DNA from: a virus
Reading direction: 5' to 3' (one strand)
IMG/VR virus record: IMGVR_UViG_3300045921_000422
Location: 1 to 25,647 of that record
DNA: 25,647 nucleotides
The notes under the pieces are model-generated. The model made no database searches and had not been told where the DNA came from. It saw nothing but the letters and a program-made list of their open reading frames with translations. Positions 111 through 5,815 of the stretch are shown piece by piece (the stretch's first letter is position 1; the number at the start of each line of letters is the position of its first letter). The translations under genes and the position numbers were made by a program.

Positions 111-613
111 AGACGGCGCGGCGCGGGCAGGTTCTACGGGAGTGGATGCGGGCGCTGGCTGACCGGCTGCGGAACGTCCGCGTCTGCTGCGGCGACTGGG
201 AGCGCGTCTGCACCGACGGCGCGACGGCGCACGGCAAGAGCGTCGGCGTGTTCCTCGACCCGCCCTACTCCGCCGAAGCCAACAGGTGCGGCGACATTTA
301 CCGCGTCGAGGACTTGAGCGTGGCGCACCGCGTCCGAGAATGGTGCGTCGCGCGAACCGACAACCACCGCTACCGGATCGTCCTCGCCGGGTACGAGGGC
401 GAGCACGACGAGCTTGAGCGGCTCGGCTGGCGCGTCGTCGCGTGGAAGGCGAACGGTGGGTTCGCCAACTTCGCAAAGGGCGACCAGCAGGGCAAGGTCA
501 ACAAGCACCGCGAGCGGTTGTGGATCAGTCCAAGCTGCGCCAATGCCACGGGCGGCGACGAACCCGACGCCGTAACGCTGTTTGCGGAAGGGGGTGCGAC
601 ATGCCGGAGGTAG
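2..613 (+). CDS. D12-class N6-adenine DNA methyltransferase, 3' part
   Basis: This is the C-terminal part of an adenine-specific DNA methyltransferase of the D12 (Dam-like) class, which transfers a methyl group from SAM to adenine N6. The catalytic motif DPPY is encoded at 257-268 (FLDPPYS). The flanking text, NVRVCCGDWERV before it and RIVLAGYEGEHDE and ERLWISPSC after it, matches phage members of the family. The frame is open to the left edge through the 42-bp repeats, so the ATG at 146 is internal and the true start lies outside the window. The SAM-binding N-terminus is missing from view. It overlaps the next gene by 13 bp. No restriction partner is visible, so protection of phage DNA or epigenetic regulation is the likely role (inference). 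Confidence 0.85.
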   Translation, partial: HLGSAGRGVRRARPHLGGAGRGVHRARPHLGDAAQGETARRGQVLREWMRALADRLRNVRVCCGDWERVCTDGATAHGKSVGVFLDPPYSAEANRCGDIYRVEDLSVAHRVREWCVARTDNHRYRIVLAGYEGEHDELERLGWRVVAWKANGGFANFAKGDQQGKVNKHRERLWISPSCANATGGDEPDAVTLFAEGGATCRR

Positions 614-1651: not shown

Positions 1652-1838
1652 CCACATTACGTCCCGCTGGCCGAGTCCCGGCCAGGCCTCTCGCAAGTAT
1701 GTTGCGAGCGGCGTTTACGTCTCGTTGGAGCGAGCATCCGCATTCACAGCTATGCCAGCGTTCGGAGATGGGACTGATCTTCCGCGACCTCGAATCTGAT
1801 CCGGTCGAGCAGATGCCGAATGATCGGGCGTGAAACAA
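1602..1838 (-). pseudogene. tnpB: TnpB (IS200/IS605 family) C-terminal relic
   Basis: The minus strand encodes the tail of an IS605-family TnpB, the RNA-guided nuclease ancestor of Cas12. From about 1769 downwards it reads ISERWHSCECGC followed by SLQRDVNAARNILARGL and AGTRPAGRNV. The CECGC is the second knuckle of the zinc ribbon, and RDVNAARNIL carries the last RuvC aspartate region. Only about 55 residues are recognisable. The part upstream of 1769 is open but not clearly TnpB, and the RuvC core, bridge helix and left end are absent, so it cannot be a working nuclease. The reading ends in TAG at 1602-1604, beside the element's right-end hairpin. It is the only sign of a mobile element in the window. 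Confidence 0.75.
1607..1626 (-). repeat. Right-end hairpin of the IS605-type relic
   Basis: ccgtcgcc-tgaa-ggcgacgg is a perfect 8-bp stem with a four-base loop overlapping the last codons of the TnpB relic. Subterminal hairpins next to the tnpB stop are typical right ends of IS200/IS605 elements, where the single-strand transposase binds and where the guide (omega/re) RNA ends. A coincidental hairpin is possible, but its position relative to the tnpB stop is as expected. Confidence 0.6.
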
Positions 1839-2086
1839 AACACGTGTTTGGACTTGGCTGGGGCAAAGTCCCCTCCGCGGAGATCGAGCGGATCGACCGC
1901 GTGCTGCGTGGCGTCAACTCGCGTCGGGAACCGAAGGACGGCGTGACTTTTGTTGCGAAGAGAACCGGCCCTTGTGGTTGGTGGCAGCACTGGTTCGAGG
2001 TCAGGGATGGCGGCGCGTCATTCTGCCGCCGGACTGCGGCAGAGGTGGAGCGGGCCGTAGGTGCGATCCATGCCGATGGAAACTGA
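1820..2086 (+). CDS. Small hypothetical protein
   Basis: An 88-residue protein of unknown function, rich in Trp and charged residues (VFGLGWGKVPSAEIERIDR, GPCGWWQHWFEV). It ends in TGATG at 2084-2088, where its stop overlaps the ATG of the hidden +1 gene inside the cytosine methylase. Its last 17 bases overlap the methylase start. It begins where the TnpB relic ends, so its original upstream region may have been lost. No family recognised. Confidence 0.5.
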   Translation: MIGRETKHVFGLGWGKVPSAEIERIDRVLRGVNSRREPKDGVTFVAKRTGPCGWWQHWFEVRDGGASFCRRTAAEVERAVGAIHADGN

Positions 2087-3206
2087 TGTGGCTGCACGTT
2101 CCATCAACATCCTGTCACTCTGTTCCGGCGTCGGAGGCCTCGACATCGGAGTTGAGCTTGCCCTTGGCGGAGCGGCTCGCGTCGTCTGCCACGTTGAACG
2201 CGAAGCATTCGCCGCCGCGATCCTGGCGGCGCGCATGGAAGATGCGGTCTTGGCTCCGTCGCCTATCTGGTCTGACATTGGAACCTTCGACGGCAGACCG
2301 TGGCGTGGCATCGTGGATTGCGTCATTGGCGGATACCCGTGCCAGCCGTTCAGCTTCGCCGGCAAGCGTTGTGGAGCAGACGATCCTCGGCATCTATGGC
2401 CGCAGGTCGCTCGCATCGTTGCGGAGTGCGTGTCCGGCATCGTGTTCTTCGAGAACGTCGCAGGCCATCTCACTTTGGGATTCCCCACTGTCCGACGCGA
2501 GCTTGAAGCAATGGGGTATCGAGTTACGGCGGGACTGTTTACGGCGGAGGAAGTCGGCGCGCCGCATCGACGGGAGCGGCTGTTCATCCTCGGGGTTCGG
2601 GACGTGGCCGACGGTCAGGGCGGAGGATGCGGAGTCGGCGGGAATGCGTCACAGCCGTGGCGTTGCGGACACACTGACTTCGGTAACGTCGATGTGGGCG
2701 ACGCCACGCACGATCACCGGCGGTGGAGAGAGTGCGGAGCGGAAGAGGGAGCTTGGGCGGGACGAATCGGGCGGCGGAGACCTGCAATCGCAGGCTCAAA
2801 ACTGGCCGACGCCTTCTGCACGCGATCACAAGGGCAGCCTGCAGATTGGCATTCGCAGCCGAACAATGGGAACGCTGGACGAGGCGGCGGAACAACTGTG
2901 GCCGCAGGCGATGTGGGGCGGATCGACCAGTGGCAGCGGGAACGGGAAGAACGAGGCACTGATTACAACGCAGGCGGGGGATGCGACCTGCCGCTCTTCC
3001 CGCCCGGACCAGGCGACCTCAACGCCTGGCGACGCATCCTCGCAATCCGACCCAACCTCGCGCCGTCGACTGAACCGGGCGTTCGTGGAGTGGCTGATGG
3101 GATGGCCGGAAGGCTGGACCGACTTCGGGCGTGTGGAAACGGCGTGGTCCCACTGGTCGCAGCGTATGCGTTCGTGTCTCTATGGGCTTGTCTGCACGAG
3201 CGATGA
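2070..3206 (+). CDS. C5-cytosine DNA methyltransferase
   Basis: A 378-residue SAM-dependent cytosine-C5 methylase with motifs in the usual order: I LCSGVGGLDIG (17-27), IV GGYPCQPFS (87-95, catalytic Cys91), VI FFENV (127-131), VIII APHRRERLFIL (164-173), a target-recognition region, and C-terminal motif X GNGVVPLVAA from 356. The preceding TEPGVRGVADG and RLDRLRACGNG are also typical. The start is ATG 2070 or 2076; GTG 2061 is less likely. By hand count about 57% of its last 47 codons end in G or C, against about 91% in the first 56 SSB codons. That is what a second coding frame on the same DNA would cause, although foreign origin could also explain it. Likely role: protecting phage DNA from host restriction. 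Confidence 0.92.
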   Translation: MPMETDVAARSINILSLCSGVGGLDIGVELALGGAARVVCHVEREAFAAAILAARMEDAVLAPSPIWSDIGTFDGRPWRGIVDCVIGGYPCQPFSFAGKRCGADDPRHLWPQVARIVAECVSGIVFFENVAGHLTLGFPTVRRELEAMGYRVTAGLFTAEEVGAPHRRERLFILGVRDVADGQGGGCGVGGNASQPWRCGHTDFGNVDVGDATHDHRRWRECGAEEGAWAGRIGRRRPAIAGSKLADAFCTRSQGQPADWHSQPNNGNAGRGGGTTVAAGDVGRIDQWQREREERGTDYNAGGGCDLPLFPPGPGDLNAWRRILAIRPNLAPSTEPGVRGVADGMAGRLDRLRACGNGVVPLVAAYAFVSLWACLHER

Positions 3207-3279
3207 CAATGAACAAGGACAGCGCCAGCCAGACCGTCAACCGCGAAGCCGCCAATGCATAGCCGAGGTAAAGCCATGA
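2086..3279 (+). CDS. Overprinted gene in +1 frame of the cytosine methylase
   Basis: A 397-residue open frame that shares almost all its DNA with the methylase, shifted by +1. Openness alone proves little in GC-rich DNA. However, its product looks like a phage protein family I recall: CLRRRKSARRIDGSG, then repeated WPT-type modules (TWPTVRAEDAESAG, NWPTPSARDHKGS), then SSRPDQATSTPG and RRRLNRAFVEWLMGWPEGWTDF. Both ends are coupled to neighbours: the ATG at 2086 overlaps the previous stop (TGATG) and its TGA at 3277-3279 overlaps the next ATG (ATGA at 3276-3279). Its last 48 codons are about 75% GC at position 3. The function is unknown. An alternative is that the N-terminal third is not expressed and an internal start is used. 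Confidence 0.6.
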   Translation: MWLHVPSTSCHSVPASEASTSELSLPLAERLASSATLNAKHSPPRSWRRAWKMRSWLRRLSGLTLEPSTADRGVASWIASLADTRASRSASPASVVEQTILGIYGRRSLASLRSACPASCSSRTSQAISLWDSPLSDASLKQWGIELRRDCLRRRKSARRIDGSGCSSSGFGTWPTVRAEDAESAGMRHSRGVADTLTSVTSMWATPRTITGGGESAERKRELGRDESGGGDLQSQAQNWPTPSARDHKGSLQIGIRSRTMGTLDEAAEQLWPQAMWGGSTSGSGNGKNEALITTQAGDATCRSSRPDQATSTPGDASSQSDPTSRRRLNRAFVEWLMGWPEGWTDFGRVETAWSHWSQRMRSCLYGLVCTSDDNEQGQRQPDRQPRSRQCIAEVKP

Positions 3280-3918: not shown

Positions 3919-4383
3919 ATGTCACTGCCAGTCATCAACCCGAAAACAGGAAGGCTGACGACAGCCGACCTCGTTGCCCGGCGGGTTGCTGACGAGGCGC
4001 GGGCGCTGCGGTCGTACCGCCACAAGTTGCAGACGGCGATCTGCAACAGTTTGCCGATCGAAGAGGTCGAGCGTACAATCGCGGCAATCATCGAAATCCG
4101 GGACAACCCGGAGGTCGATCCGCGGGTGAGGCTGGCGGCATGTTCGGAGTTGCTTGACCGCACGGTGGGCAAGCCGCGGGTGATCCAGGAGGTCGAGGTC
4201 GAGCAGCGGCGGGAGAACGTGCTGGAGATCATCACGCAGCGGTTTGGCCTGACGATGCTGGAGGGCGAGGTTGTCGAAGCGGCGGAAAGAATCGGCGGGC
4301 CGACCGGAAGCGCAGGCGGCTCCGGCGACGGAGGCGGCGAGCAGCTCGCACTCCCTGCTCCGCCCGACGATGAAAAGCCGTGA
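3919..4383 (+). CDS. Small terminase subunit-like protein
   Basis: A 154-residue mostly helical protein placed directly before the large terminase and overlapping it by 14 bp. The segment EVDPRVRLAACSELLDRTVGK resembles a helical repeat often found in phage terminase small subunits and related DNA-binding proteins. The C-terminus is Gly/Pro-rich and disordered. No classical HTH is obvious. The assignment rests mainly on position, so a packaging-associated protein of other function is possible. ATG 3919 follows a strong hairpin. The in-frame start at 3886 would run through the hairpin. Confidence 0.6.
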   Translation: MSLPVINPKTGRLTTADLVARRVADEARALRSYRHKLQTAICNSLPIEEVERTIAAIIEIRDNPEVDPRVRLAACSELLDRTVGKPRVIQEVEVEQRRENVLEIITQRFGLTMLEGEVVEAAERIGGPTGSAGGSGDGGGEQLALPAPPDDEKP

Positions 4384-5815
4384 CGTGCTGCGGCGGGAGG
4401 ACTTCTCCCGCGTCGGCACGTTCCTCGACTACCAGCGGCGATGGATCATGGACCCCGGCCCGATGGCCATCGTCGAGAAGGGCAGGCAGGAGGGGTTCAC
4501 CTACTGCGAGGCGTTCTGGTCGGTGTTCCGGCGGCTCATGCTCGCGGAGCGGGGCAAGCGGTTGAACCACTACTTCTCCAGCGCTGACGCGGCGACGGCG
4601 AAGGAGTTCGTGGACAAGTGCTGCGACTGGGCGAGGGTGCTGAACATGGTCGCGGAGCATGACGCCGTCGGGATCGAAGACGGCATCAGCATCGAGCGGC
4701 TGAGGACTCGCGGCGGCGACATCATCGCCGTCAGCAGCAAGGCCAAGGCGCTGCGCGGCAAGAAGGGCGACGTGACGCTGGACGAGTTCGCGTTCGCCGA
4801 GGACGCCGACTCGCTGATCGACGCGGCGGAAGCCTGCACGACGTGGGGCACGGGCGACGAACCGGGCCACCTGCGAATCATCAGCACGCACAACGGGCCG
4901 GGCACGCTGTTCCGCCGCATGGCGAACGCGGCGAAGTCCGGCGACAACGGATTCAACCACCACTTCGTGTCCATCCACGAGGCCGTGCGGGACGGGATCG
5001 CGGTGCTGATCCCCGGCCCGCACCAGCGCCATTTGGACGGGACGCGGGAGGGGCGGCAGAAGTGCGACGCGGAATACATCGCGTCCAAGCGTCGCCGGTC
5101 GCGTTCGGCGGCTGCCTTCTCGCAGGAGTACGAGTGCCAGCCGATCTCGTCCGGATCGGTGATCCTGCCCATCGAGTACGATTCGTGTGTACGCGAGTCG
5201 ATGCCGGTCACCGAGGACTTGGACCCGGCATCTGACTACAACGGGCATGAACTGTTCGCCGGGATCGACGTTGGGCACACGCACGACCTGACCGTGGTGT
5301 GGGTGGTCGAGCGGGGATGGGTTCCGCACGAGAAGAACCCGGCGCTGGACGACCTGCACCGCACGGTGTACCGCACGGTGGCGGTCAAGGCGATCCACAA
5401 CGAGCCGATCCCCGCCCAGTGGCAGATGATCCGCGGGATGATCGGACACCGCTGCATGTCGAAGGTGCTGATCGACCCCGGCACGGTCGGAGCCGTCCTG
5501 TGCAACCTCGCCGTCCAGCAGTTTGGCGACATCGTGGAACCCTACTCGATCACCCGCGGTCGGAAGGCCGAACTGTGCGAGCGGCTTCGGCAGTTCGTGC
5601 AGGAGCGCCGCGTCAGCCTGCCGCGGAACGAGCGAATCCGCGAGGACGTGCTGTCGATGCGGAGGGAGACGACGGATGGCGGGCAGGCCCGGTATGACGG
5701 GTCAACGCGGTTCAGCCACTGCGATTACTTTGTAGCCCTGTCGCTTGCGTTACAGGCCGCCGAGGGCGGACGCGAAAGCGGCATCATGGTCATGAACGAT
5801 TCCGGGGCGGCATGA
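4370..5815 (+). CDS. Terminase large subunit (Mu gp28-like)
   Basis: A 481-residue DNA-packaging motor with ATPase and nuclease domains. The adenine-binding region FLDYQRRWIMD is followed by the Walker A variant EKGRQEGFTY (36-45), with GRQ in place of GKT as in Mu gp28-type terminases. Walker B is VTLDEF (135-140), followed by a coupling-like IISTHNG (170-176). The C-terminal RNase H-like nuclease has acidic residues in FAGIDVGHTHD (D300), VLIDPGT (D369) and SHCDYF (D452). ATG 4370 overlaps the small subunit by 14 bp; a TTG at 4271 would add a Ser/Ala-rich leader and is unlikely. It docks on the portal encoded next. Confidence 0.9.
   Translation: MKSRDVLRREDFSRVGTFLDYQRRWIMDPGPMAIVEKGRQEGFTYCEAFWSVFRRLMLAERGKRLNHYFSSADAATAKEFVDKCCDWARVLNMVAEHDAVGIEDGISIERLRTRGGDIIAVSSKAKALRGKKGDVTLDEFAFAEDADSLIDAAEACTTWGTGDEPGHLRIISTHNGPGTLFRRMANAAKSGDNGFNHHFVSIHEAVRDGIAVLIPGPHQRHLDGTREGRQKCDAEYIASKRRRSRSAAAFSQEYECQPISSGSVILPIEYDSCVRESMPVTEDLDPASDYNGHELFAGIDVGHTHDLTVVWVVERGWVPHEKNPALDDLHRTVYRTVAVKAIHNEPIPAQWQMIRGMIGHRCMSKVLIDPGTVGAVLCNLAVQQFGDIVEPYSITRGRKAELCERLRQFVQERRVSLPRNERIREDVLSMRRETTDGGQARYDGSTRFSHCDYFVALSLALQAAEGGRESGIMVMNDSGAA

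What the first reader, a model, noticed from the sequence alone, without database searches (positions are those of the whole stretch)
2086..3279. Two conserved protein families encoded in overlapping frames of the cytosine-methylase DNA
The methylase frame is intact to motif X (GNGVVP), and the +1 frame is open for 397 codons. Its product carries recognisable conserved blocks (RRRKSARRIDGSG, WPT modules, LNRAFVEWLMGWPEGWTDF) that I recall from phage proteins annotated apart from methylases. The +1 blocks fall exactly over methylase motifs VIII and X. The hidden gene is coupled at both ends by stop/start overlaps (TGATG at 2084-2088, ATGA at 3276-3279), and the methylase codons lose their GC3 bias there. 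This suggests a gene born by overprinting on a methylase and kept by selection, possibly the origin of a whole phage family.
Basis: partly seen in the sequence, partly recalled or inferred. Interest (0 to 1): 0.8.

Follow-up and report, generated by a model that had tools for sequence, protein, structure and literature searches.

The report
Second protein hidden inside phage methylase
In this phage and hundreds of relatives one stretch of DNA encodes two different proteins in overlapping reading frames, a cytosine methylase and a partner that probably supplies its missing DNA-recognition part, which shows how two genes can share the same letters and split one enzyme between them.

Summary
A 397-codon +1 ORF (2086-3279) spans the whole C5-methylase gene (2088-3206). 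It is a real, selected gene. In 32 of 33 loci found through the methylase alone, the +1 frame has no stop in either half; the exception lies outside the family (~73 N-half stops expected). A further 160 of 160 loci carry it. Over 65 independent pairs, the constrained frame changes along the gene. Over motifs I-VIII the methylase frame is conserved (dN/dS 0.16). Between VIII and the motif-IX block the methylase frame is neutral (0.94) and the +1 frame conserved (0.17; control 0.65). Over the motif-IX block both are conserved, and at motif X mainly the methylase frame. The WPT/LNPxFVEWLMGWP half is therefore not an overprint. It is homologous to the recognition/motif-IX half of other phage methylases, where it stands in frame with motif X. 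Only the +1 N-half is overprinted. Best reading: a split m5C methylase, catalytic chain in frame 0 and recognition/motif-IX chain in +1, started 2 nt apart at NTGTGG, resembling M.EcoHK31I but fully overlapping. Assembly and activity are inferred. One complication: complete single-chain relatives also keep a short +1 ORF.

The parts
2086..3279 (+). +1-frame gene, 397 aa: overprinted N-half, WPT modules, motif-IX-like block, C-terminal helix
   Evidence: full-length homologues in about 300 loci fetched; C-half dN/dS 0.17
2088..3206 (+). C5-cytosine methylase frame, GTG start at 2088 (alternatives GTG 2061, ATG 2070, ATG 2076)
   Evidence: PF00145 E 1.9e-30 over motifs I-VIII; phrog_363 over the whole length; starts
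2086..2091 (+). dual start ATGTGG: +1 start at 2086, methylase GTG at 2088
   Evidence: NTGTGG in 83 of 112 loci
2118..2144 (+). methylase motif I (LCSGVGGLD), frame 0
2337..2345 (+). methylase motif IV (PCQ), frame 0
   Evidence: G83, P85, C86 invariant in A3
2451..2459 (+). methylase motif VI (ENV), frame 0
2556..2579 (+). methylase motif VIII (GAPHRRER), frame 0; overlain by +1 RRRKSARRIDGSG
2161..2325 (+). +1 segment 1 (about residues 26-80), predicted folded in part; methylase 4-fold sites slow here (0.124 vs 0.288), not in single-chain relatives
2446..2556 (+). +1 segment 2 (about residues 121-157), mostly a predicted helix; 4-fold sites slow (0.111), also in actinophage relatives
2605..2628 (+). 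+1 WPT module 1 (WPTVRAED)
   Evidence: W174/T176 nearly invariant
2695..2718 (+). +1 WPT module 2 (WATPRTIT)
   Evidence: W204 nearly invariant
2803..2826 (+). +1 WPT module 3 (WPTPSARD)
   Evidence: W240/P243 nearly invariant
2601..3005 (+). frame-0 region between motif VIII and the tail: neutral in the methylase frame, conserved in +1
   Evidence: methylase dN/dS 0.94, +1 0.17; codon-position flip
3006..3065 (+). frame-0 block GPGDLNAWRRILAIRPNLAP; methylase frame constrained again
   Evidence: substitution profile -50 to -30 before motif X
3070..3126 (+). +1 motif-IX-like block LNRAFVEWLMGWPEGWTDF
   Evidence: hhalign to actinophage EWMMG block prob 98.9; L329, F333, M338 invariant
3084..3128 (+). 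frame-0 block RGVADGMAGRLDRLR under the +1 motif-IX block; both frames constrained
   Evidence: methylase dN/dS 0.37, +1 0.12
3135..3152 (+). methylase motif X (GNGVVP), frame 0
1820..2086 (+). upstream 88-aa ORF; its stop TGA 2084-2086 overlaps the +1 start

Best explanation
One DNA segment encodes both chains of a split cytosine-5 DNA methyltransferase. Frame 0 makes the catalytic chain: motifs I-VIII, an unconstrained linker, a short conserved block and motif X. The +1 frame, over the same DNA, makes a second chain whose C-half holds the WPT modules and the motif-IX block LNPxFVEWLMGWPxGWT, which in other phage methylases lie between motif VIII and motif X of the enzyme itself. Translation of the two chains begins 2 nt apart at NTGTGG, so one ribosome-landing site can serve both and give similar amounts. 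The chains then assemble into a methylase that modifies phage DNA, most likely against host restriction. Shown by computation: both frames are selected, the constraint changes frame along the gene, starts are paired, the +1 C-half is homologous to the recognition/motif-IX half of other phage methylases. Inferred: that both chains are made, that they bind each other, that the WPT part reads the target, and what it protects against.
For: (1) Selection against +1 stops in both halves, none against +2 stops. (2) +1 homologue in the same offset in 160/160 further loci, half found by methylase profile in viral contigs and half by +1 profile in bacterial genomes. (3) Constraint by region: I-VIII methylase 0.16; recognition region methylase 0.94 [0.83-1.06], +1 0.17 [0.15-0.20]; IX block 0.37 and 0.12; X 0.17 and 0.52. 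Control methylases: 0.19 for the methylase and 0.65 for +1 in the C-half. (4) Homology of the +1 C-half to the LLPTP/EWMMG chain of actinophage methylases (hhalign 99.2 and 98.9); homology of frame-0 motif X to the same chain's motif X (96.4). (5) In Rita-type phages that block sits in one chain with I-VIII and X; AlphaFold plus VIA-align place a chain of that type on M.HhaI (Z 22.6, rmsd 3.8, 251 aligned). The HMM alignment sets EWMMGWP on M.HhaI VMGYP (motif IX), colinear but at -2.8 bits. (6) In Kampy, EricB, Anthony, Smooch, phiBT1, Colucci and Upyo the enzyme is two ORFs: I-VIII in one frame, the LLPTP-IX-X chain in +1 over motif VIII. (7) In L169/L174/L177 frame 0 is cut by several stops before motif X, yet I-VIII stays constrained in frame 0 and the recognition part in +1. 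(8) Dual start NTGTGG in 83/112 loci. (9) M.EcoHK31I precedent: motif IX alone on a second polypeptide (PMC3404938).
Against: No expression, binding or activity data. AlphaFold of the +1 chain is mostly low (mean pLDDT 58) and finds no fold relative. In the N-half the +1 dN/dS (0.65) is not below the control (0.69); the case there rests on stops, the SN/SS ratio (0.42 vs 0.74, overlapping intervals) and slow 4-fold sites. Single-chain actinophage methylases that already hold LLPTP, IX and X in frame 0 still keep an open, conserved +1 ORF over motif VIII (15 of 15 examined), which the simple split-subunit model does not predict. Motif IX identity by sequence is weak. The frame-0 block before IX shows no detectable homology to the corresponding block of the single-chain enzymes (hhalign prob 1).
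Confidence: 0.62

Rival explanations
1. The +1 protein is a real gene with a separate job (for example a methylase regulator, a target-DNA or anti-restriction protein) that happens to share DNA with the methylase; its likeness to the recognition half is an old relic.
For: A short conserved +1 ORF over motif VIII also exists in single-chain methylases that have their own IX and X. Large parts of the +1 product are predicted disordered.
Against: The methylase frame has lost constraint exactly where +1 carries the homologous recognition half, so the methylase would be left without a recognition region.
Confidence: 0.2
2. Programmed ribosomal frameshifting: ribosomes read I-VIII in frame 0, shift to +1 for the recognition region and back for motif X, making one chain.
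For: Constraint changes frame at motif VIII, before the W block, and around IX/X. In L169/L174/L177 motif X stays conserved behind frame-0 stops.
Against: It needs two or more shifts per chain. The N-half of +1 is kept free of stops although a shifting ribosome would not read it in +1. +1 has its own conserved start NTG-TGG. Segment 1 shows family-specific slow 4-fold sites. No slippery site was searched for systematically.
Confidence: 0.1
3. Frame 0 beyond motif VIII is decaying and only the +1 chain plus I-VIII matter; motif X in frame 0 is a remnant.
For: Several loci have frame-0 stops after motif VIII (L155, L169, L174, L177, L216).
Against: Motif X in frame 0 keeps dN/dS 0.17 over 65 pairs.
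Confidence: 0.06
4. The long +1 ORF is a shadow of GC-rich methylase codons without function.
For: VADA-type repeats read WPTP in +1, so some +1 similarity follows from frame 0.
Against: Stop depletion is +1-specific and survives synonymous codon shuffling, including in loci at 43-55% GC. In the C-half the methylase frame is neutral, so +1 conservation cannot be its shadow.
Confidence: 0.02

Closest known systems
M.EcoHK31I (YGGCCR), two-polypeptide C5 methyltransferase
   Same: Large chain with motifs I-VIII and X, motif IX on a second smaller polypeptide (PMC3404938, citing Lee et al. 1995, not held). From memory, the smaller one is read from another frame inside the larger gene.
   Different: There the target recognition domain is assigned to the large chain. 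Here the recognition region of frame 0 is neutral and the WPT modules are in +1; the +1 gene spans the entire methylase gene and starts with it. No sequence comparison with M.EcoHK31I was made.
M.AquI, split C5 methyltransferase
   Same: Catalytic motifs I-VIII on one chain, recognition part on another (PMC3404938).
   Different: In AquI the second chain also holds motif X, and the split lies inside the variable region.
Actinophage two-gene methylases (Kampy gp78/gp77, Anthony, Smooch, Upyo gp54/gp53, phiBT1)
   Same: I-VIII in one frame; a recognition chain in the +1 frame over motif VIII with LLPTP modules and EWMMG.
   Different: Motif X is in the +1 chain; the overlap is partial; +1 does not reach the methylase start.
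Single-chain actinophage methylases (Rita, prophiGD91-2)
   Same: LLPTP, EWMMGWPxGWVT and GNGVVP homologous to parts of both chains here.
   Different: All in frame 0; only a short +1 ORF remains around motif VIII.
PHROG families 1008, 27243, 26627 and annotated overlap in Escherichia phage fKuEco01
   Same: phrog_1008 and 27243 match the +1 product at 1.6e-22 and 1.2e-15. fKuEco01 has both frames annotated: DNA cytosine methyltransferase and putative Mte8-like protein.
   Different: Labelled DNA methyltransferase or unknown. phrog_1008 also weakly matches motif X of frame 0 (E 0.23), so it may contain chains of the actinophage type.

Membership tests
C5-cytosine DNA methyltransferase (PF00145) | Motifs I, IV (PCQ), VI (ENV), VIII in order in frame 0 | tested here: met
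   PF00145 1.9e-30 over residues 12-177; G83, P85, C86, N124, V125, R163, R165 invariant in A3
C5-cytosine DNA methyltransferase (PF00145) | Motif X (GNxVxP) in the same chain | tested here: met
   GNGVVP at 3135-3152; dN/dS 0.17
Single-chain C5 methyltransferase | Recognition domain and motif IX in the same chain as I-VIII | tested here: not met
   Frame-0 recognition region neutral, dN/dS 0.94; IX-like block lies in +1
Split C5 methyltransferase (AquI/EcoHK31I type) | Catalytic motifs and motif IX/recognition part on two separately encoded chains | tested here: met
   Sequence and selection only; motif IX identity rests on homology to in-frame blocks and weak alignment to M.HhaI
Split C5 methyltransferase (AquI/EcoHK31I type) | Both chains needed and assembling into the active enzyme | not testable with these tools
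   needs expression and methylation assay
M.EcoHK31I-like nested pair | Sequence relation of the two chains to EcoHK31I alpha and beta | not tested
   EcoHK31I sequence and primary paper not available here
De novo overprinted gene | No homologue of the product outside the overlap | tested here: not met
   C-half homologous to in-frame methylase chains. For the N-half alone no outside homologue was seen: no Pfam or NCBIfam family, no fold match
De novo overprinted gene | Alternate frame under purifying selection | tested here: met
   Stop depletion in both halves, C-half dN/dS 0.17, slow 4-fold sites over segment 1 only in this family

The most novel reading that the evidence does not exclude
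A large clan of phage cytosine methylases encodes its catalytic and its specificity chain full-length on the same DNA in two frames with near-coincident start codons. The functional blocks of one ancestral enzyme have been dealt alternately to the two frames (I-VIII in 0, WPT in +1, W block in 0, IX in +1, X in 0), so that neither protein works alone and most annotations show only one of them.
Probability: 0.5. Interest if true: 0.88.

Novelty: new variant of a known kind. Interest (0 to 1): 0.75.

Why it matters
Full-length same-strand gene pairs with clear evolutionary proof are rare outside small viruses. Here hundreds of diverse loci show selection moving from one frame to the other along a well-understood enzyme, so questions about how overlapping genes arise and are kept become measurable: each chain has known motifs, structures of relatives and a simple activity assay. 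It also means that many phage methylases are annotated in the wrong frame or as one protein when two are needed, which bears on phage counter-restriction and on methylase assays that fail when one chain is cloned.

Tried and rejected
Shadow or chance ORF: rejected. Whole-protein birth by overprinting: rejected for the C-half. Pfam, NCBIfam and PADLOC for the +1 product: nothing. Foldseek and VIA-align for the +1 model: no match; the model is weak, so this says little. Homology of the frame-0 W block to the single-chain WGKYAxAIxRWE block: not supported. Pfam on tails of actinophage chains: no PF00145 tail match. First use of single-chain methylases as a +1-free control had to be qualified: they turned out to carry a short +1 ORF around motif VIII, so the 0.65-0.69 baseline is if anything conservative. 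hhalign E-values are for one-to-one comparisons and are nominal. Papers: no report of this overlap in phages found; PMC8008677 and PMC3711429 were opened and are about other genes. The M.EcoHK31I paper is not held. Own genome: only the 25.6-kb virus record exists.

Full report
WHAT IS THERE. The +1 ORF 2086-3279 (397 aa) and the methylase frame ending at 3206 are as described. Motifs and blocks are mapped. The methylase belongs to PF00145 up to motif VIII and to phrog_363 over its length. The +1 product has no Pfam or NCBIfam family but matches PHROGs 1008 and 27243. The starts are packed: TGA of the upstream ORF (2084-2086), +1 ATG (2086), methylase GTG (2088).

IS THE +1 FRAME A GENE? Searching viral contigs with the methylase only and reading the +1 frame afterwards avoids bias. 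Inside the shared region 32 of 33 loci have no +1 stop in the N-half and 32 of 33 none in the C-half. Synonymous shuffling expects 84 and 57 stops in all. The one exception, L138, lies outside the family. The +2 frame shows no depletion (206 vs 207 and 276 vs 270). A wider scan gave 160 loci (80 bacterial genomes by +1 profile, 80 viral contigs by methylase profile): every one has the +1 homologue at the same offset. Relatives down to 43-50% GC keep it open, apart from one to three stops near the ends.

WHICH FRAME IS SELECTED WHERE? Over 32 independent pairs, substitutions fall on methylase codon position 3 up to about 20 codons past motif VIII. They then switch to position 1 (the +1 wobble position), with position 3 lowest, then back for a short block 50-30 codons before motif X, then +1 over LNPxFVEWLMGWP, then frame 0 at motif X. 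An OLGenie-style count over 65 pairs gives methylase and +1 dN/dS of 0.16/0.65 (I-VIII), 0.94/0.17 (recognition region), 0.37/0.12 (IX block) and 0.17/0.52 (X). Single-chain actinophage methylases as control give 0.19/0.69 and 0.19/0.65. So the N-half value of 0.65 is only baseline; constraint on the N-half of +1 is shown otherwise: synonymous changes creating a +1 stop run at 0.063 of other synonymous changes (control 0.145, intervals overlap), and 4-fold sites are slow over +1 residues 26-79 (0.124) compared with 80-120 (0.288), a trough absent in the control (0.266 vs 0.308). 4-fold rates anticorrelate with AlphaFold confidence of the +1 chain (rho -0.66, p 0.006).

WHAT IS THE +1 PROTEIN? 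An alignment of 81 shows W2, L329, F333 and M338 invariant and repeated W[PA]TP modules. Its C-half is homologous to the LLPTP-EWMMG chain of actinophage methylases (hhalign 99.2 on the segment around motif VIII and the first WPT module, 98.9 on the EWLMG block). In Rita, prophiGD91-2 and others this chain is in frame with I-VIII and X. In Kampy, EricB, Anthony, Smooch, Colucci, phiBT1 and Upyo it is a second ORF in +1 that overlaps motif VIII and carries motif X. Frame-0 motif X of the window family is homologous to motif X of that chain. A model of a single-chain relative matches M.HhaI over its whole length (Z 22.6), and the profile sets EWMMGWP on M.HhaI motif IX, colinear but with a negative score. 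The order of blocks is the same in all forms; what differs is the frame.

TREE. On motifs I-VIII the fully overlapping loci form one side of a well-supported branch (40 of 42 rows, 100/100). Single-chain and two-gene actinophage forms are interleaved on the other side, with the two remaining overlap-labelled rows, L138 and L231. Direction of change cannot be read without an outgroup.

NATURAL EXPERIMENTS. In L169, L174 and L177 frame 0 has several stops between VIII and X. Between these loci the catalytic part still varies at position 3 (for example 11/2/21) and the recognition part at the +1 wobble (54/12/4). The frame-0 recognition region is thus dispensable while +1 is not. Motif X remains conserved there behind the stops, which I cannot explain; a downstream ATG in frame 0 exists in each.

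MECHANISM. The best reading is a split m5C methylase, both chains from one segment, starts 2 nt apart. Precedents for splitting are M.AquI and M.EcoHK31I (PMC3404938); in the latter motif IX alone sits on a second polypeptide. Against a simple version: all 15 single-chain actinophage methylases in which motif VIII was located also keep an open +1 ORF of 100-260 codons over it, with a conserved SETWPxSGMTRxG...LPTP sequence and slow 4-fold sites. The +1 chain may therefore be older than the full overlap and do something besides supplying motif IX.

LIMITS. No expression, binding or activity data. The substitution method is my own short implementation. hhalign values are one-to-one. Loci in the 160 set include near relatives, though the 65 pairs use each locus once.

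Noticed in passing
L001 (PP438429.1) and L004 (OM868082.1), 1494-2633: Matching Synechococcus phage loci are annotated in different frames: the +1 product XAI96804.1 in one, the methylase UPT53381.1 in the other. Sphingomonas WP_239025738.1 (L396 795-1886) is also the +1 product.
   Followed up: yes
L169 2683-3352, L174 3033-3708, L177 1067-1742: Frame 0 carries multiple stops after motif VIII, yet motif X downstream in frame 0 is still conserved; an in-frame ATG lies between the last stop and motif X.
   Followed up: partly
L141, L143, L146, L314-L322, L324, L333, L362 around motif VIII: Complete single-chain methylases keep a short conserved +1 ORF (SETWPxSGMTRxG ... LPTP) with slow 4-fold sites.
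   Followed up: partly
L141 vs L147 (phages Rita and Jarcob): Nearly identical methylases, one as a single ORF, one split into two annotated genes by a short sequence difference before motif VIII.
   Followed up: no
L085 2005-2007: A single stop interrupts the +1 frame in an otherwise conserved pair; could be real loss or a sequence error.
   Followed up: no
window 146-613: ORF with DPPY reads like an adenine methylase; together with the cytosine methylase the phage may modify both bases (read by eye only).
   Followed up: no
window 4271-5815: Terminase-like large ORF (read by eye) with GC3 0.90, a useful reference for the lost GC3 bias in the methylase gene.
   Followed up: partly
L395 797-1612 (Leptospira interrogans plasmid p2): An overlapping pair of the ABMM1 phage type also occurs on a Leptospira plasmid; only the methylase frame is annotated.
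   Followed up: partly
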